A stretch of 64,000 nucleotides of DNA from Rhizobium subbaraonis (lineage in GTDB: Bacteria; Pseudomonadota; Alphaproteobacteria; Rhizobiales; Rhizobiaceae): the NCBI RefSeq assembly GCF_900220975.1, contig NZ_OBQD01000011.1:124001-188000 (forward strand). Direction: 5' to 3'. The notes beneath the pieces are model-generated. The model worked only from the letters and a program-made list of their open reading frames with translations, searched no databases and was not told where the DNA came from. Numbering within the stretch: the stretch's first letter is position 1; each line of letters begins with the position of its first letter. Made by a program: the position numbers and the translations under genes. Positions 52,925 through 62,845 of the stretch are shown here, piece by piece.

Positions 52925-52957
52925 ATGGCCGCGACTTACGCGGCCATTTCCATTTTT
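52925..52957. terminator. Bidirectional terminator hairpin between hemA and dxr
   Basis: ATGGCCGCG (52925-52933) and CGCGGCCAT (52939-52947) form a perfect 9-bp stem with a 5-base loop ACTTA, followed on the plus strand by TTCCATTTTTG. The dxr stop codon (TAA, 52938-52936 on the minus strand) lies in the loop, so the right arm encodes the last dxr codons. Confidence 0.7.
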
Positions 52958-54129
52958 GCAATGACCTCGCTTGCCTGCCTGCGCGCTTCGGCGTCGGTGG
53001 CAAAGACATCCTCCATCGTCGTGGCGGCCGGCCAGCCGGCCATCGCATCCATCACGATCTCTGCAATGTCGGCCATGTTCAGGAAGCCGATCCGACCGTC
53101 GACGAAAGCGTTGAAGGCGGTTTCCTCGGCAGCATTCATGATTGCGCCCTGTGCGCCGCCACGTTCGAGCGCGGTCCTGGCAAGGCGCAGCGCAGGAAAG
53201 CGTTTTTCGTCCGGCGCCTCGAAATCCAGCCGCGCCAGCTTGGCGAAATCCAGCCTGTCGACGTTGAGACGCGGACGGGCAGGGTAGGTCAACGCGTAGC
53301 CGATCGCCGTGCGCATGTCCGGGCATCCCAACTGCGCCAGCACCGAGCCGTCCGTGTAGCCCACCATGGAGTGGACCACCGATTGCGGATGCACGACGAC
53401 CTCGATCTGATCGGGACGTACATCGAACAGATGCTTCGCCTCGATCATCTCCAGCGCCTTGTTGAACATCGAGGCGCTGCCGATGGATATCTTCAAGCCC
53501 ATCGACCAGTTCGGGTGCGCGCGGGCGATCGCGGCGGTGACGCCGGCCATCTGCTCGCGCGTCCAGGTGCGGAACGGCCCGCCGGAGGCGGTGAGCACGA
53601 TCCGCTCGACGGCGTGGCGCTGGTCGTCCTCCAGCGCCTGGAAGATCGCGCTGTGTTCGCTGTCCACGGGGATCAGCCGGCCGCCGCCTGCGGCCACGGC
53701 TTCGACGAACAGGCTTCCGGCGGAAACGAGGCACTCCTTGTTGGCGAGGGCAATGTCGGCGCCGCGCCGCGCGGCGGCCAGCGTCGGTGCCAGCCCGGCA
53801 GTGCCGACGATCGCGGCCATGACCCAGTCGGAGGGCATGGCGGCTGCTTCGAGCAAGGCAGTGCGGCCGGCGGCAGCAGCGATGCCGCTGCCCGCCAGTG
53901 CCTGCTTCAGGTCTTCGTAGCGGCGCTCGTCGGCCGTGACCGCCAGCGATGCGCCCGCGGTCCTGGCCTGTTCCGCCAGAAGGGCGACGTTGCCGTTTCC
54001 GGTGACGGCAACGACATCGAATGCGTCCTGGCCACCGAGCTGCTGGATCACGTCCAGGGTATTCGTGCCAATCGAGCCGGTGGAACCGAGGATGGTAACG
54101 CGGCGCTTGTTCTTGTCGCTGGGTGCCAT
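52936..54129 (-). CDS. dxr: 1-deoxy-D-xylulose 5-phosphate reductoisomerase
   Basis: Second enzyme of the MEP isoprenoid pathway, converting DXP to 2-C-methyl-D-erythritol 4-phosphate with NADPH; 397 residues from ATG 54129. The NADPH motif TILGSTGSIGTNTLDVI is near residues 12-28. Metal-binding and substrate residues lie in NKECLVSAGSLF, PVDSEHSAIFQALED and LTASGGPFRTW. The frame is open about 950 bases further upstream, but the true start fits MAPSDKNKRRVTILGSTGSIG. It converges with hemA and is divergent from the META-MliC gene. Its 3' end sits in a terminator hairpin. Confidence 0.96.
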   Translation of the reverse strand: MAPSDKNKRRVTILGSTGSIGTNTLDVIQQLGGQDAFDVVAVTGNGNVALLAEQARTAGASLAVTADERRYEDLKQALAGSGIAAAAGRTALLEAAAMPSDWVMAAIVGTAGLAPTLAAARRGADIALANKECLVSAGSLFVEAVAAGGGRLIPVDSEHSAIFQALEDDQRHAVERIVLTASGGPFRTWTREQMAGVTAAIARAHPNWSMGLKISIGSASMFNKALEMIEAKHLFDVRPDQIEVVVHPQSVVHSMVGYTDGSVLAQLGCPDMRTAIGYALTYPARPRLNVDRLDFAKLARLDFEAPDEKRFPALRLARTALERGGAQGAIMNAAEETAFNAFVDGRIGFLNMADIAEIVMDAMAGWPAATTMEDVFATDAEARRQASEVIAKMEMAA

Positions 54130-54312
54130 GATTGTTTCCGCGATCTTTTTATTGTCTTGAAGAGGCTCTACAGCCGATTGCCACGCGCAACAAGGTGTCG
54201 AGTTTCGCCATCGGCCGTCGCGGCAGCGCGTACAGCGCTTGACGTTTTCATCGGAGCGGCCATAACGTCGCCGCTGGCGACCGGTTCGCCCTATTCGTTT
54301 TGGAGGATGCCC

Positions 54313-55029
54313 GTGCGGTTTTCTGTGAATGCGCTGGCAGCTGTGCTGCTGTCCCTCGGCTCTGCTACGGGCCTCTTCGCTGCGGAAGCGCTTCCGCCGG
54401 GACTGAGCGCAACCTGGGTCGTCGAAGACCTCAGCGGCAAGGGCGTGATCGACAACCTCCAGACGACGCTGGAAATTCGCACGGACGGCTCCTATGGCGG
54501 CAACGGCGGCTGCAACACCTATCGCGGCAACCTGAAGTTCGAGGCCGATGGCTCGGTAACCTTCGCGCCGGCCGCGGCCACGCGCAAGATGTGTGCCCCG
54601 GCCGTAATGGACCAGGAGCAGCGCTTTTTCGATGCGCTGGGCACGGTGAAGTCGTGGAAGCTGGAAAACGGCCTGTTGCTCCTTGCCGACAAGGACGGCG
54701 GCCATGCGATGCGGCTTGCGATGTTGCGGAACACCACGGACATAGTGCTGCAGATACCCAATACCGTCACGGTCGACCGCCAGACGGTTTCCTATGACTG
54801 CGACGGCGACCTCAAGGTCAAGGCGGACTACATCAACGCCGAGTCCGTTTCTCTTGCGATCCTGACCTTCGGGGAAAACTTCGTCATCGCGAGCAACGTG
54901 ATTGCCGGTTCCGGTGCCCGCTATGCCGGCGGCCAGTTCGAATGGTGGACCAAGGGCGACGAAGGCACCCTGCGCGACATGACCAGCGGCGCCGTCGTAC
55001 CGGGCATCGCCTGCCGAAAGGCACCCTGA
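54313..55029 (+). CDS. Exported META-domain protein with C-terminal MliC (lysozyme inhibitor)-like domain
   Basis: About 238 residues with a Sec signal peptide (MRFSVNALAAVLLSLGSATG, cleavage after LFAA). The META domain (about residues 30-125) carries YGGNGGCNTYRGNLKFEADG. A C-terminal unit (VSYDCDGDLKVKADY through GARYAGGQFEWWTKGDEGTL) resembles MliC/PliC inhibitors of c-type lysozyme. I prefer GTG 54313, since TGGAGG ends 6 bases ahead; ATG 54307 touches that site directly and is less likely. It should act in the periplasm or be membrane associated. It is followed 47 bp later by a small unknown gene. Confidence 0.85.
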   Translation: MRFSVNALAAVLLSLGSATGLFAAEALPPGLSATWVVEDLSGKGVIDNLQTTLEIRTDGSYGGNGGCNTYRGNLKFEADGSVTFAPAAATRKMCAPAVMDQEQRFFDALGTVKSWKLENGLLLLADKDGGHAMRLAMLRNTTDIVLQIPNTVTVDRQTVSYDCDGDLKVKADYINAESVSLAILTFGENFVIASNVIAGSGARYAGGQFEWWTKGDEGTLRDMTSGAVVPGIACRKAP

Positions 55030-55076
55030 ACGTCCAAGGCGACGCAGCCGCAACCGACTGCTTTTCGGAGATCGCA

Positions 55077-55457
55077 ATGCCCACTTTTCACGTCGGACAG
55101 AAAGTCGTCTGCATCAACGACAAGTTCAAGAATGTCTCGATCGACCAGGGCATTCGCAAGGGCACGATCTATACCGTCCGCTGGGTCGGCCACTACCGTC
55201 ACTATGTCGACGGCGACTTCTACGGCATCAAGCTGATGGAACTCTACCGCGGCAACGACGATGGTCCGGAAGGCTATGGCGCCGTCGACATGCCTTTCCG
55301 CGCCAGCCGCTTTCGGCCACTGGTGTCCGACCGCATCAAATCCATGCTCGGCATGAGGGCGCCCGCGCCGAAGGTCGAGGCGCGCCCCTCCATCGTTCCG
55401 TCCGTAAAGCCGAAGCCGCGCGTCACGACGCCGGCGCGCGAGAAGGAAGAGGTCTAA
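55077..55457 (+). CDS. Unknown small basic protein
   Basis: I do not recognise this 126-residue protein. Residues 1-80 look like a compact beta-rich domain (FHVGQKVVCINDKFKNV; RKGTIYTVRWVGHYRHYVDG; GIKLMELYRGNDDG), suggestive of an SH3-like or beta-barrel fold. Residues 90-126 form a Pro/Lys/Arg/Val-rich tail that should be unstructured. No signal peptide or membrane segment. ATG 55077 has CGGAG 6 bases upstream. It follows the META-MliC gene by 47 bp and precedes a hairpin and a tRNA. Similar proteins seem to occur in rhizobia, some near phage remnants, but I see no phage genes here. Confidence 0.75.
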   Translation: MPTFHVGQKVVCINDKFKNVSIDQGIRKGTIYTVRWVGHYRHYVDGDFYGIKLMELYRGNDDGPEGYGAVDMPFRASRFRPLVSDRIKSMLGMRAPAPKVEARPSIVPSVKPKPRVTTPAREKEEV

Positions 55458-59541: not shown

Positions 59542-60582
59542 TCACTGCTTCCAGGTGACGCCGACAAACGTTCCGGACTCCTTGTCCGGGCGGTCGTATG
59601 CGACCGTCGCCCCGAGATTGAGCGCCATGGCGTTGATCAGGCGGGTACCGAGGCCCGTCCCTTTGGGGCGCTCCTTGCGATCATGGCCGACCCCGTCGTC
59701 CTCGACGGTAAGATGGTAGCTGTCGTCGCCTTTCTTTCCTAGCACGACGCGTACCTCGCCGCAGCCGTCGGGATAGGCGTATTTCGCAGCGTTGGTCAGA
59801 AGTTCGGTCAGGATCACGCCAAGCGACACGGCCTTGTCGGCTGTCGTGGCGATATTGGCGATATCGGAGCGGACCGTAATGGCGTTTGCAAATCCGCTGC
59901 CGCGCTGAAATTCGGCGATGATGGAACTCATGTAGGCACCCAGTTCCACCGCCTCGACATTGTCGGAGGTGTAGAGGCTGCGATGAACGCCGGCGATCGC
60001 TGAAATCCGGCTCTGGGTTTCCGCGAGCGCCGTCCTCGTCTCCTCGCTCGTTGCGATCTGCACCTGCATGCGGATCATCGCCGATACGAGAGACAGGCTG
60101 TTTGCGATGCGATGGTTCATCTCCGACAGCAGAAGCTCAGCCCGCTCCTTGGCGATCAGGAGCTGCCGATCTGCTTCCTCCTTCGCCTTGCGCAGGCGCG
60201 CGTTCTCCAGGGCCTGCTCCAGGGCGCTGGCAAGCAGCGGGAAGAAATCGTCGGTGGCGGATTTCATCACATAGTCGGCCGCCCCGCCCTTCAGCGCCTT
60301 GATCGCGACTTCGGCGTCGCTGGAACCGGTCACGTACAGGATCGGTGCCTTGGACCGACTTTCGGCGACCGCTTCGAGGAAGTTCAATCCGGTCTGGTTC
60401 TCGAAATGGTGGTCGAGGACGACGGCTGCGAATTCCTCGGCGCCGAAAAGATCGAGGCCGGCCGAAATCGAGGGGGCATGCACGACCTCGAAGTCGCTGC
60501 GGGCGAGCACCTTGCTCGCCAGCCGCGCCAGCGCCGGGTCGTCGTCGACGTAGAGAACACGAACTTTGCGACTTGCCGTCAT
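59542..60582 (-). CDS. Receiver-HisKA_2 (HWE-like) sensor kinase
   Basis: A 346-residue protein with an N-terminal receiver domain (residues 6-125; VLYVDDDPALARL and phospho-acceptor in AVVLDHHFENQTG). A coiled coil (about 130-160) leads to a HisKA_2 dimerisation/phosphotransfer region (ERAELLLSEMNHRIANSLSL, His in NHR). A HATPase domain follows (LTELLTNAAKYAYPDG; VEDDGVGHD; GTGLGTRLINAMA). It is cytoplasmic. The receiver input and the 4-bp overlap with the upstream receiver gene indicate the final stage of a phosphorelay. Kinases of this class often feed the alphaproteobacterial general stress response, but no PhyR or NepR is in the window. Confidence 0.9.
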   Translation of the reverse strand: MTASRKVRVLYVDDDPALARLASKVLARSDFEVVHAPSISAGLDLFGAEEFAAVVLDHHFENQTGLNFLEAVAESRSKAPILYVTGSSDAEVAIKALKGGAADYVMKSATDDFFPLLASALEQALENARLRKAKEEADRQLLIAKERAELLLSEMNHRIANSLSLVSAMIRMQVQIATSEETRTALAETQSRISAIAGVHRSLYTSDNVEAVELGAYMSSIIAEFQRGSGFANAITVRSDIANIATTADKAVSLGVILTELLTNAAKYAYPDGCGEVRVVLGKKGDDSYHLTVEDDGVGHDRKERPKGTGLGTRLINAMALNLGATVAYDRPDKESGTFVGVTWKQ

Positions 60583-61016
60583 GGAACCTGTATCACTGAG
60601 AAAAAGAGCCCGAGATTGCGGATCGCGGTTGCGAAACCCTCATAGTCGACGGGCTTTGTTATGTAGACGTTGGCGCCGAGATCATAGCATTTCTGGATCT
60701 CGCGCTCGTCGTCGGTTGTGGTCAGGACGACGACGGGCAGGCGGCGTGAATGCTCGTTGCTCTTGATCTGCTGAAGGATGTCGATGCCGGACATGTCCGG
60801 CAGGTTCAGGTCGAGCAGGACCAGCAGATAGCGGTCTTTGTTGGCCACACCGTCGCGCTTCTCGCCGAGAATGAAGTCCAGCGCCTGGCTGCCAAGGGTG
60901 AACGGCACGATCTCATTGTGAACGCCGGCGCGGCGGACGTTCTTTTCGATGAGGCGCGCATGGCCCTCGTCGTCCTCGATCATGACGATGGTGACTTCCT
61001 GACCGGTGGCTTTCAT
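60579..61016 (-). CDS. Stand-alone response regulator (Rcp1-like)
   Basis: A 145-residue single-domain receiver with no output domain. Acidic pocket IEDDEGHARLIEKNVRRAG, phospho-Asp in LVLLDLNLPDMSG, conserved Thr in VVVLTTTDD and Lys in YITKPVDYEGF. The first helix is similar to the cyanobacterial Rcp1 type that partners with histidine kinases. It overlaps the upstream kinase by 1 bp (TAATG) and the downstream receiver-kinase by 4 bp (ATGA). It is therefore a likely shuttle between the two. Confidence 0.93.
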   Translation of the reverse strand: MKATGQEVTIVMIEDDEGHARLIEKNVRRAGVHNEIVPFTLGSQALDFILGEKRDGVANKDRYLLVLLDLNLPDMSGIDILQQIKSNEHSRRLPVVVLTTTDDEREIQKCYDLGANVYITKPVDYEGFATAIRNLGLFFSVIQVP

Positions 61017-62506
61017 TACTCGTTACTCCTGAAAACTTTGGTGAGATCGGTCGGCAGCGTGAGCATGAACGTGCTTCCGCGGCCCAGTTCGGACTCCACC
61101 GTAACGTCTCCACCCAAATTCCGTATTAACGAACGTACATGTGCCAGGCCGATTCCCTCACCCGGCTGGTCCTGTGCGCCCGCGCGGCGAAAGAGCTCGA
61201 AGACGCGCTCCAGATCCTGCTCGCCGATGCCGCGGCCATTGTCCGTCACGGCGATCCTGACCTGTCGCGGACCATGCGGGCGAAGCGCGATCGAAAGCGT
61301 CAGCGGCCGGCCGGGCATCTGGTACTTCACCGCATTGTCGAACAGATTGCCGAAAATCTGCTCCAGGGAAAAGCGGTCTGTGACGATAGCGCCGAAATGG
61401 CCGGAGATGGTCGCCTTGCCGCCCTGTTCGCTCAGCTGGTGCTGCACGGACGCGACGCTGGCCTCGATCAGCGCCTTCACGTCGATGCGTTCGGGCTGCA
61501 GCTTGCGCCGTCCGTCGCGCGAGATTTTCAGGATCGCGTTGATCAGCGCATCCATCTTGCGGGTCGAGGAGCGGATGAAGCCCATCGCTTCCGGCAGGTC
61601 CTCGGTGACGGCGAGCCGGGCCTCGCGGATATCGTCTTCGCTGGGTGTACGCTCGTCCGCAATCACATAGGCCGTGACGGCCTTCATTGATGTCTCCAGC
61701 TCGCTCAGGAAGCCCATGATATTGACCAAAGGCGCACGCAGGTCGTGGGTGACGATGTAAGCGAAGCGCTGGATCTCCTGGTTGGCGCGGATGAGGTCCT
61801 GCGTCCGCTCGTTGACCCGCTCTTCCAGTCCCGCATTGAGCGCGATGACTTCCTCCCGTGCCCGGGCCAGATCGCGCACGTGCTGGAAAATGACCAGAAC
61901 CGCACCGCCGAGTACGGTGATAATGGCAATGGCGCCGCCGATCGTGACCCATTGCAGATTCTCCGCCGCTGCAAGCTGCCTCTCGATCAACACGCGCAGC
62001 TGGTCGTCGGTGTGTTCCAGAAATCCGTTGAGAATTTCCCGGATGCGGTTCATCAGTTGCAGGCCGGCATCCGTGCCCAAGAGCGCATAGGCCTCATCGA
62101 ACCTGCCCTGCTCCGTCAGGCTCACGCTATTGGCCAGCTCGGCCATCTTGCCGTCGACGGCGCGCTTCAGTTCGTCCAGTTGCGACGCGTAGTCGGGCCG
62201 GGAACGGAGATTTTCCTCCAGCGTCTTCCACCGTGCGGGCAGGTCTGCGACGGCCTTGTCGTAGGGCGCAAGATAGGATTTTTCCCGGGAGAGAAGGTAG
62301 CCGCGCTGCCCCGTCTCGGCGTCCTGTACCGTCGTCAGCACGCCGATGATGGCGCTTCGGATGCGGCGAAGGGAGGCAGTCTCGTCGGAATAGGACCGGT
62401 TGACTTCGACGAGCCACAGGGAATAGCCGACGATGCCCAGAAGAAGGAGGATGCCCAGACCCAGCATGAGCAGGCTTGAGCGAAGAAATGCGGCCGATGA
62501 GGTCAT
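61016..62506 (-). CDS. CHASE3-domain membrane sensor histidine kinase
   Basis: A 496-residue inner-membrane kinase. Membrane segment one is LLMLGLGILLLLGIVGYSLW (about 13-32). A CHASE3-type periplasmic domain follows (TVQDAETGQRGYLLSREKSYLAPY), then segment two (VTIGGAIAIITVLGGAVLVI, about 193-212). A coiled coil leads to HisKA (FAYIVTHDLRAPLVNIMGFL, phospho-His in THDLRAP) and HATPase (NLFDNAVKYQMPGRP; VTDNGRGIG; GEGIGLAHVRSLI). The ligand is unknown. It starts the three-gene signalling operon, and its stop overlaps the next gene. Confidence 0.93.
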   Translation of the reverse strand: MTSSAAFLRSSLLMLGLGILLLLGIVGYSLWLVEVNRSYSDETASLRRIRSAIIGVLTTVQDAETGQRGYLLSREKSYLAPYDKAVADLPARWKTLEENLRSRPDYASQLDELKRAVDGKMAELANSVSLTEQGRFDEAYALLGTDAGLQLMNRIREILNGFLEHTDDQLRVLIERQLAAAENLQWVTIGGAIAIITVLGGAVLVIFQHVRDLARAREEVIALNAGLEERVNERTQDLIRANQEIQRFAYIVTHDLRAPLVNIMGFLSELETSMKAVTAYVIADERTPSEDDIREARLAVTEDLPEAMGFIRSSTRKMDALINAILKISRDGRRKLQPERIDVKALIEASVASVQHQLSEQGGKATISGHFGAIVTDRFSLEQIFGNLFDNAVKYQMPGRPLTLSIALRPHGPRQVRIAVTDNGRGIGEQDLERVFELFRRAGAQDQPGEGIGLAHVRSLIRNLGGDVTVESELGRGSTFMLTLPTDLTKVFRSNE

Positions 62507-62593: not shown

Positions 62594-62845
62594 TCAGGGT
62601 GCGTTGCCTTTGCGGATCAGGAAGCGGTGGCCGCCGTCGATGCGCTCGTCCGCCTCGAGCGTATGGCCGTACTCGTTGCAGAAATGCGGGATATCGATCA
62701 CGGCCAGCGGGTCGGTGGTCTCGATCCAGAGCGAGGCGCCGGTGGGCAGTTGCTCCAAGCGCTTGCGCGTCCTCAGCACCGGCAACGGGCATTTCAGCCC
62801 CTTGAGGTCATAGACATCGCCCGCGCCGCTCGCGCCCGCGGTCAT
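62594..62845 (-). CDS. TusA/SirA-family sulfur carrier-like protein
   Basis: An 83-residue TusA-fold protein with the active cysteine in LKGLKCPLPVLRTRKRLEQL near residue 20. It ends with the family's GGHRFLIRKG. In E. coli TusA relays sulfur for tRNA thiouridine, but many homologues serve other sulfur or redox roles, so no symbol is given. Its start overlaps the stop of the upstream L,D-transpeptidase gene by 4 bp, implying coupling. Confidence 0.9.
   Translation of the reverse strand: MTAGASGAGDVYDLKGLKCPLPVLRTRKRLEQLPTGASLWIETTDPLAVIDIPHFCNEYGHTLEADERIDGGHRFLIRKGNAP

What the first reader, a model, noticed from the sequence alone, without database searches (positions are those of the whole stretch)
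59542..62506. Overlapped three-gene phosphorelay: CHASE3 kinase, stand-alone receiver, receiver-HisKA_2 kinase
The genes overlap by 1 and 4 bp and domain order implies kinase to receiver to hybrid kinase transfer, without a DNA-binding output. The output must be a protein elsewhere, possibly the general stress response phosphorelay or an enzyme.
Basis: partly seen in the sequence, partly recalled or inferred. Interest (0 to 1): 0.55.

Follow-up and report, generated by a model that had tools for sequence, protein, structure and literature searches.

The report
CHASE3 kinase relay into stress response
Three overlapping bacterial signalling genes form a conserved module, a membrane sensor kinase, a free receiver protein and a receiver-controlled kinase, that most likely feeds the general stress response of this group of bacteria; the same kind of module has been studied under other names, so it is a well-supported new example rather than a new kind of system.

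Summary
In detail: on the minus strand, CHASE3-HisKA kinase (K1), stand-alone receiver (REC) and REC-HisKA_2 kinase (K2) overlap by 1 and 4 bp. It is a conserved module: 100 of 103 alphaproteobacterial REC loci keep K1-REC-K2 in that order, with phosphorylation residues kept in 97-98 of 98. No neighbour is universal, so the output lies elsewhere. It is most likely the general stress response: PhyR lies within 10 kb of REC in 10 of 51 module genomes (6 of 27 families; about 0.5% expected per genome), and in one family ecfG abuts K1. PhyR is found in 49 of 51 alphaproteobacterial module genomes; none of 19 others has a convincing one. The window's own copy is not next to phyR; its link is by homology. 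The module is not new in kind: in Sinorhizobium medicae it is annotated tcsA-tcrA-fsrR (acid induction of lpiA), and it resembles the KipF-PakF pathway of Sphingomonas melonis. New here are the unification, the wide distribution, and the finding that the free receiver, whose role is unknown to me, is the most conserved part.

The parts
61016..62506 (-). K1: membrane sensor kinase, CHASE3-HisKA-HATPase (KipF/TcsA-like)
   Evidence: Pfam domains; His, N-box and G1 residues conserved in 97-98 of 98 homologues
60579..61016 (-). REC: stand-alone Rcp1-type receiver (TcrA-like), most conserved part of the module
   Evidence: Pfam; top solved relative 3heb_A E 7.8e-63; acceptor Asp 98 of 98, mean pairwise identity 0.68 among 34 representatives
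59542..60582 (-). K2: receiver-controlled HisKA_2/HWE (HRxxN) kinase (PakF/FsrR-like)
   Evidence: Pfam; HRxxN His/Arg/Asn 98 of 98 and receiver Asp 97 of 98; model whose best Foldseek hit is LvrB 8vc9
61016..61016 (-). 1-bp overlap K1 stop / REC start (TAATG)
60579..60582 (-). 4-bp overlap REC stop / K2 start (ATGA)
62594..62845 (-). tusA-like gene upstream, 87 bp before K1; kept there only in close relatives, not part of the module
   Evidence: Pfam; directly upstream of the module in L039-L041 and L076

Best explanation
A two-tiered stress-input module. K1 senses a periplasmic or membrane signal through its CHASE3 domain, autophosphorylates, and passes phosphate to the receiver domain of K2 and, in parallel, to the free REC. 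Phosphorylation of the K2 receiver switches on the HisKA_2 kinase core, as in receiver-controlled kinases. K2 then phosphorylates PhyR, directly or through an SdrG-type receiver, which draws NepR off the sigma factor EcfG and turns on the general stress regulon. REC would tune K1/K2 as a phosphate sink or regulator. Shown here: gene anatomy, conservation, catalytic residues, genomic association with phyR/ecfG across families, presence of PhyR, NepR and EcfG in this genome. Inferred: every phosphotransfer step, the signal, and the role of REC.
For: K2 belongs to the HRxxN HisKA_2/HWE class; among NCBIfam models its best match is the PhyK kinase (2e-27, 96 bits, far below that model's cut-off of 750). 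Kinases that activate PhyR mainly belong to this class (PMC6599016, passage). PakF phosphorylates PhyR and SdrG in vitro (PMC5898713, passages) and is phosphorylated by KipF (PMC5863495, passage). Neighbour clustering of 55 module loci gave EcfG-type sigma and PhyR as the most frequent non-module neighbours (10 and 9 loci, then ABC transporters in 8); 10 of these 19 proteins, from 8 loci, were scanned by Pfam and all 10 confirmed; tblastn added PhyR in L160, making 10. By genome, PhyR is within 10 kb in 10 of 51 (6 of 27 families); P about 1e-13 by genome and 4e-9 by family at 0.5% each, 4e-9 and 3e-6 at 1.5%. One of the ten, G163, was found only with a second model; without it 9 of 51 and 5 of 27, P 5e-12 and 2e-7 at 0.5%, 7e-8 and 5e-5 at 1.5%. 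ecfG overlaps the longest K1 frame by 4 bp in L169 and L173. Control: 0 of 13 weaker REC hits listed for the same genomes lie within 10 kb of PhyR (by hand). Class sample: PhyR_sigma-like over the cut-off in 15 of 17 module genomes against 90 of 368 others. EcfG-type motif before K1 in 6 of 87 against 0.6 in shuffles. This genome holds phyR, nepR, ecfG and an HWE-type kinase on C49 and a second phyR on C33.
Against: The window copy, and nearly all Rhizobium and Agrobacterium copies fetched, are not near phyR, and the window has no EcfG-type motif before K1; the link is by homology. PhyR is near the module in only 10 of 51 genomes. HisKA_2 kinases outside the module can also lie by phyR/ecfG: L007 of this genome and a second kinase in L182, L183 and L185, so nearness may mark the kinase class. 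The other control is weak: 0 of 11 non-module HisKA_2 loci (L082-L088, L090-L093) hold PhyR or EcfG, but several are close relatives, L090 is cut on one side and L082 may be a stray K2. Two alphaproteobacterial genomes, G350 and G510, have module RECs but no identifiable PhyR; their third genes are absent or atypical, yet G497, with an atypical one too (L107), has PhyR. Three of the 19 non-alphaproteobacterial genomes have a hit just over the PhyR_sigma-like cut-off (27-32 bits), which I take for ECF sigma factors without a domain scan. In S. medicae the published output is lpiA, with a sigma-54-like and no EcfG-like site upstream. Promoter shuffles kept base composition only; three of the six hits come from one family. 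No phosphotransfer was measured.
Confidence: 0.68

Rival explanations
1. The module is an acid-sensing system with its own output, as tcsA-tcrA-fsrR in S. medicae: K2/FsrR hands phosphate to a sigma-54-dependent (NtrC-type) regulator that drives lpiA and other membrane-lipid genes, not to PhyR.
For: S. medicae annotation and gene order tcsA-tcrA-fsrR-lpiA; fsrR required for acid-activated lpiA (passages in PMC5613336 and PMC4674904, citing Reeve 2006, which I have not read); sigma-54-like site before lpiA; NtrC-type receiver protein about 1.8 kb from tcsA.
Against: NtrC-type regulators lie near the module in 5 of 55 loci, two of them from one family, which I hold to be near what such common genes give by chance (no formal test). 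The window's lpiA homologue is on another contig, C67, without such a site in the 500 bp before the match. S. meliloti induces lpiA by acid without fsrR (passages in PMC9048898 and PMC2651895). The S. medicae genes fall in a different clade from the window's.
Confidence: 0.15
2. Linear phosphorelay: K1 -> free REC -> K2 (back-transfer to the K2 histidine, or binding of REC~P to K2), with the K2 receiver a separate input.
For: REC sits between the two kinases and is the most conserved part (0.68 mean pairwise identity against 0.45 and 0.53 for the kinase cores); transfer from a free receiver to a HisKA_2-type histidine is known for SdrG to PhyT (PMC5898713, passages).
Against: PhyT has a degenerate ATPase domain (passage) while K2 keeps its N-box and G1 residues (97 of 98; G2 Gly 81 of 98); in the precedent KipF phosphorylates PakF; REC lacks the FAT GUY-type motif of SdrG (sequence; motif from a reference title).
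Confidence: 0.12
3. The module acts on something other than transcriptional stress control, for instance motility or an enzyme, with phyR neighbours being a side product of clustering of signalling genes.
For: SdrG and the Pak kinases also affect motility and biofilm genes (PMC6599016, passages); most loci lack phyR nearby; other HisKA_2 kinases also lie near phyR.
Against: 0 of 13 other REC hits of the same genomes are near PhyR; six families share the link; ecfG-K1 overlap in one family.
Confidence: 0.05

Closest known systems
KipF-PakF two-tiered pathway, Sphingomonas melonis Fr1 (Kaczmarczyk 2015, J Bacteriol 197:1466; paper not held, known here from a passage in PMC5863495 and from recall)
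   Same: A histidine kinase phosphorylates PakF, which lacks a sensor domain and feeds PhyR and SdrG; that PakF is REC-HisKA_2 is recalled.
   Different: KipF/PakF sequences of strain Fr1 were not available here, so identity of the loci is inferred; I do not know whether Fr1 has the free REC between them. That KipF has a CHASE3 domain is recalled.
tcsA-tcrA-fsrR of Sinorhizobium medicae (acid induction of lpiA)
   Same: Same three genes, order and domains; identities 38%, 67% and 41% to the window proteins.
   Different: In a separate clade (19 tips, support 1.0) from the window and its named Rhizobium, Agrobacterium, Mycoplana and Phyllobacterium relatives (41 tips, support 1.0); sits on a plasmid next to lpiA; the window copy does not.
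LvrA-LvrB of Leptospira
   Same: LvrB is a receiver-controlled kinase without another sensor, switched on by receiver phosphorylation (PMC13269768, abstract and passages); best Foldseek hit of the K2 model, 8vc9_A E 2.5e-16.
   Different: About 20% identity; global TM-score low (0.32), so the domain arrangement is not matched; the output is LvrC, an anti-sigma factor.
Rcp1-type receivers (Cph1-Rcp1 of cyanobacteria)
   Same: REC matches RcpB, RcpA and Rcp1 structures (E 7e-19 to 5e-18).
   Different: The partner here is a CHASE3 kinase, not a phytochrome (Cph1 as partner of Rcp1 is recalled), and a second kinase follows.

Membership tests
KipF-PakF type input to the general stress response | membrane kinase with CHASE3 sensor next to a sensorless REC-HisKA_2 kinase | tested here: met
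   (that KipF has CHASE3 and PakF is REC-HisKA_2 is recalled)
KipF-PakF type input to the general stress response | genome encodes PhyR, NepR and EcfG | tested here: met
   phyR, nepR, ecfG on C49 (nepR and ecfG by sequence, placed by eye and used as queries), second phyR on C33
KipF-PakF type input to the general stress response | second kinase has the HRxxN motif and intact receiver and kinase residues | tested here: met
   sequence NHRIAN
KipF-PakF type input to the general stress response | first kinase phosphorylates the receiver of the second | not testable with these tools
   needs phosphotransfer assay; helix-1 likeness is only suggestive
KipF-PakF type input to the general stress response | second kinase phosphorylates PhyR and/or SdrG | not testable with these tools
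   needs assay
tcsA-tcrA-fsrR (S. medicae) | gene order and domains of the three genes | tested here: met
tcsA-tcrA-fsrR (S. medicae) | lpiA directly downstream | tested here: not met
   lpiA homologue of this genome is on contig C67, module on C72; cobW, on the other strand, follows the module
tcsA-tcrA-fsrR (S. medicae) | same clade (orthology) | tested here: not met
   (FastTree on concatenated alignments)
FAT GUY receivers (SdrG, MrrA) | PFxFATG[G/Y] motif | tested here: not met
   REC reads LPVVVLTTTDDER and the K2 receiver APILYVTGSSDAE at that place; motif as in a reference title seen
receiver-controlled histidine kinases (LvrB type) | REC - one long helix - kinase core, no other sensor | tested here: met
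   model mean pLDDT 81.6 with helix 113-176 joining REC to the kinase core; LvrB is top Foldseek hit

The most novel reading that the evidence does not exclude
The free receiver, not either kinase, is the core of the module: it is the most conserved part and shares kinase-facing helix-1 residues with the K2 receiver. K1 would charge both receivers at once, and the free one would set the gain or memory of the switch (sink, competitor or direct regulator of K2 or PhyR). In the non-alphaproteobacterial relatives looked at, the K1-REC pair persists while the third gene differs or is not found, so K1-REC would be an exchangeable input block, and the HisKA_2 kinase its adaptor to PhyR.
Probability: 0.3. 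Interest if true: 0.6.

Novelty: new member of a known kind. Interest (0 to 1): 0.45.

Why it matters
It ties together two experimentally studied systems that I found nowhere connected (searches; the key 2006 and 2015 papers were not readable here): acid induction of lpiA in S. medicae and KipF-PakF signalling in Sphingomonas, as one module type spread over Alphaproteobacteria. It predicts that FsrR, a kinase without a DNA-binding domain that is said to 'transcriptionally activate' lpiA, works through a receiver elsewhere, which can be tested directly. It also qualifies the published view that the tcsA-tcrA-fsrR system is absent from species other than E. medicae (passage in PMC9048898): modules of the same type are common, although true orthologues may not be. 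And it points to a free receiver that is conserved more strongly than the kinases around it.

Tried and rejected
Rejected: a dedicated DNA-binding output next to the module. Neighbour clustering of 55 loci found no universal neighbour besides the three genes and their antisense frames; of the further clusters I looked at the members of six: EcfG, PhyR, ABC transporters (8 loci), a permease-like group, a short-chain dehydrogenase-like group and NtrC-type regulators (5 loci each); the last four were judged by eye to be common families, without a formal test. Clusters of 4 loci or fewer were only listed.

Rejected: lpiA as conserved partner. It directly follows the module in S. medicae. LpiA was a query against all held loci, but only loci with a PhyR, EcfG or NepR hit were printed, so I have no full count.

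Considered: REC as a FAT GUY hub (SdrG/MrrA); motif absent. Considered: orthologue of tcsA-tcrA-fsrR; the tree puts them in separate clades, though support near the S. medicae tip is weak (0.13 to 0.87).

Led nowhere: EcfG-type motif before K1 in the window and before lpiA of this genome and of S. medicae (none). Paper searches for a link: 'CHASE3' with 'PhyR' gave one paper, where the match is the Phyre server; one search gave none; of 64 papers I saw 12 listed, none evidently on this module; 'lpiA' with 'RpoE2' gave two papers on acid response. The library does not hold Kaczmarczyk 2015, and Reeve 2006 was known only through citing papers, so nothing here shows that the link is not in print. 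VIA-align rows for the K2 model match single domains, and LvrB is not among the 50 shown; that says nothing about membership. Helix-1 likeness: taken in the window alone, the module REC is only tied second in score among 33 other receivers for the K2 receiver (first is another receiver of the genome, L213). The signal lies in 104 modules: mean 5.1 of 15 identical against 2.3 for REC with 30 receivers of this genome; but the K2 receiver itself averages 3.0 (maximum 10) against these 30, and common ancestry of the two receivers could also explain it. The 30 were the 30 best of 79 matches.

Rows dropped before counts: L001 (duplicate of L009); L128-L138 from the count 100 of 103; L135-L138 and two identical sequences before the residue counts. 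The sets of 55 and 87 loci include close relatives; 15 of the 55 were chosen by hand from named loci. Several match lists were capped, so nearness to PhyR is a lower bound and the 13 control hits are those listed. The HisKA_2 control leaves out this genome's own loci L002 and L007, of which L007 lies by ecfG.

Full report
Observation. On the minus strand of the window lie K1 (62506..61016, 496 aa), REC (61016..60579, 145 aa) and K2 (60582..59542, 346 aa), overlapping by 1 and 4 bp. Pfam gives CHASE3-HisKA-HATPase_c, Response_reg alone, and Response_reg-HisKA_2-HATPase_c with a weaker HWE_HK match; no DNA-binding domain. Neighbours are tusA and a gene with a below-cut-off match to the YafK/DpaA family upstream on the same strand, and cobW and a D-Ala-D-Ala carboxypeptidase on the other strand.

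Conservation. tblastn of the window proteins on fetched loci shows K1-REC-K2 in the same order in 100 of 103 alphaproteobacterial REC loci (L001 and the 11 non-alphaproteobacterial loci set aside); the three exceptions are the three REC copies of genome G350. Of the named loci with about 6 kb on each side, the window's flanking genes stand beside the module in L039-L041 and L076 only; L063 and L065 have tusA and its neighbour about 4 kb downstream instead. In the order sample of 150 genomes, 25, this one included, have a REC of at least 64% identity; in the class sample 17 of 385 at E 1e-35; in the phylum sample 38 of 299 at 1e-30, 19 of them outside the class; in the family sample 50 of 199, 33 of 109 genera. 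So the module is widespread but patchy. Twenty-nine plasmid records hold the REC; in the four of five inspected that have annotation it lies in the three-gene set, and tblastn shows the set in the fifth too.

Residues and rates. Over 98 distinct alphaproteobacterial modules the K1 His and Asn, the REC acceptor Asp, Thr and Lys, the K2 acceptor Asp, Thr and Lys and the HRxxN His, Arg and Asn are kept in 97-98 (the misses are gaps); the K2 G2 glycine in 81. Mean pairwise identity among 34 representatives under 60% identity: REC 0.68, K1 kinase core 0.53, K2 receiver and linker 0.49, K2 kinase core 0.45, K1 sensor part 0.28. The sensor varies, the relay is kept, and the free receiver most of all. 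Helix-1 positions A4, R5, L6, K/R9 and R13 are common to REC and the K2 receiver (mean 5.1 of 15 identical over 104 modules; REC against 30 other receivers 2.3, K2 receiver against them 3.0). This fits one kinase serving both but could be shared ancestry.

Output. All-against-all clustering of open frames around 55 module loci (40 unnamed, 15 chosen from named loci) gave, besides the three genes and their antisense frames, an EcfG-type sigma factor in 10 loci and PhyR in 9 as the most frequent neighbours, then ABC transporters in 8. Ten of the 19 proteins, from eight loci, were scanned by Pfam: the five PhyR ones carry PhyR_sigma2 and Response_reg, four of them also PhyR_sigma-like (L190 lacks it); the five sigma ones carry Sigma70_r2 and Sigma70_r4_2. 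tblastn added PhyR at the edge of L160 and NepR in L089 and L166. In L169 and L173, of one family, ecfG overlaps the longest K1 frame by 4 bp on the same strand, so ecfG-K1-REC-K2 looks like one operon; the K1 start is not proven. From the coordinates, PhyR lies within 10 kb of REC in 10 of 51 alphaproteobacterial module genomes, in 6 of 27 families. At 0.5% per genome P is about 1e-13, by family 4e-9; at 1.5% 4e-9 and 3e-6. G163's PhyR was found only by clustering and by a second model; without it 9 of 51 and 5 of 27. Controls: 0 of 13 weaker REC hits listed in the same genomes (by hand); 0 of 11 HisKA_2 loci without the module, a weak set with close relatives and one cut locus. Against this, a non-module HisKA_2 kinase of this genome (L007) and one in each of L182, L183 and L185 also lie by phyR/ecfG, so nearness may mark the kinase class as much as the module.

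Co-occurrence. PhyR was found in 35 of 35 alphaproteobacterial module genomes given to and in 15 of the 17; G035 is in both sets, so 49 of 51. The two without, G350 and G510, have atypical or missing third genes: REC-HisKA_2-REC (L114) or none (L101, L116) in G350, REC-PAS-HisKA_2 in G510. G497, with one REC-PAS-HisKA_2 copy (L107), does have PhyR. Among the 19 non-alphaproteobacterial genomes I see no convincing PhyR: three have hits at 27-32 bits just over the cut-off, which I take for ECF sigma factors without a domain scan. Eleven of their loci were looked at (L128-L138): K1-like kinase core and REC persist; the third gene has REC, PAS and HisKA in the three scanned (L134, L136, L138), L135 and L137 match part of K2 and were not scanned, and the other six have no K2 match, L128 being cut short. 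In the class sample PhyR_sigma-like is over the cut-off in 15 of 17 module genomes and 90 of 368 others; genome size and kinship confound this, and some hits are sigma factors.

Promoters. An EcfG-type motif (recalled consensus GGAAC-N15-17-[CG]GTT) lies before K1 in 6 of 87 upstream regions against 0.6 on average in composition shuffles (maximum 4 in 300 runs); three of the six are from one family, and one is the Sphingomonas plasmid. The window has none.

This genome. It holds phyR, nepR, ecfG and an HWE-type kinase together on C49 and a second phyR on C33, so the proposed target exists. It has 79 receiver matches and one match to this REC at E 1e-10. Its lpiA homologue is on C67.

Known relatives. 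A plasmid of S. medicae annotates the same three genes as tcsA, tcrA and fsrR, 'acid-responsive', directly before lpiA. Papers citing Reeve 2006 say fsrR is required for acid-activated lpiA (passages, PMC5613336 and PMC4674904), and one says the system is not present in species other than E. medicae (passage, PMC9048898). Modules of this type are in fact common, but the S. medicae copy falls in a separate clade (19 tips, support 1.0) from the window and its named Rhizobium, Agrobacterium, Mycoplana and Phyllobacterium relatives (41 tips, support 1.0), so that statement may hold for strict orthologues. Before lpiA in S. medicae I saw a sigma-54-like site and no EcfG-type site, so the S. medicae output may differ. 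In Sphingomonas melonis Fr1, KipF phosphorylates PakF (passage, PMC5863495), and PakF phosphorylates PhyR and SdrG in vitro (passages, PMC5898713). That PakF has an N-terminal receiver and KipF a CHASE3 domain I recall; heat and salt sensing is in the title of Kaczmarczyk 2015, which is not held. Sphingomonas parapaucimobilis carries the module with CHASE3 K1, and in G716, G722 and G772 of family f64 K2 is the only listed full-length REC-HisKA_2 match.

Structure. The K2 model (mean pLDDT 81.6, pTM 0.61) shows REC, one long helix 113-176 running into the helical domain, and the ATPase domain. Foldseek's best match is LvrB in its phosphorylated-receiver form (8vc9_A, E 2.5e-16, 383 columns, TM 0.32), described as the prototype of receiver-controlled kinases (PMC13269768, abstract and passages). 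The kinase part matches the blue-light kinase EL346 (4r39).

Conclusion. The module most likely is a KipF-PakF-type input to the general stress response (0.68). The phosphotransfer steps, the signal and the role of the free receiver are inferred, and the window copy is linked to PhyR by homology, not by position.

Noticed in passing
L094 about 10590 and L094:4334-5731: S. medicae lpiA has a sigma-54-like site (TGGCACACTGTGTGC) upstream, and an NtrC-type sigma-54 regulator lies about 1.8 kb from tcsA on the opposite strand.
   Followed up: partly
L128-L138: Genomes outside Alphaproteobacteria, some with up to 248 first-look receiver candidates, carry a K1-like kinase core with REC at 46-56% identity, another sensor in L131 (HAMP, weak Cache) and a third gene that differs or is not found.
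   Followed up: partly
L101, L114, L116: Genome G350 holds three copies of this REC, none in a complete canonical module, and no identifiable PhyR.
   Followed up: partly
61016-62506: The HisKA domain of K1 is longer than the Pfam model: from His to the ISR/LSR motif it spans 76 residues in 72 of 104 homologues (the rest 66-89, one cut), suggesting an extended hairpin.
   Followed up: partly
L069:1224-3430: Agrobacterium pusense has a second, distant K1-REC-K2-like set (28-32% identity) just upstream of the module.
   Followed up: no
52936-55077: The open frame on the minus strand ends in a 1-deoxy-D-xylulose 5-phosphate reductoisomerase-like protein (reading of the translation by eye); whether the genome has another copy was not checked.
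   Followed up: no
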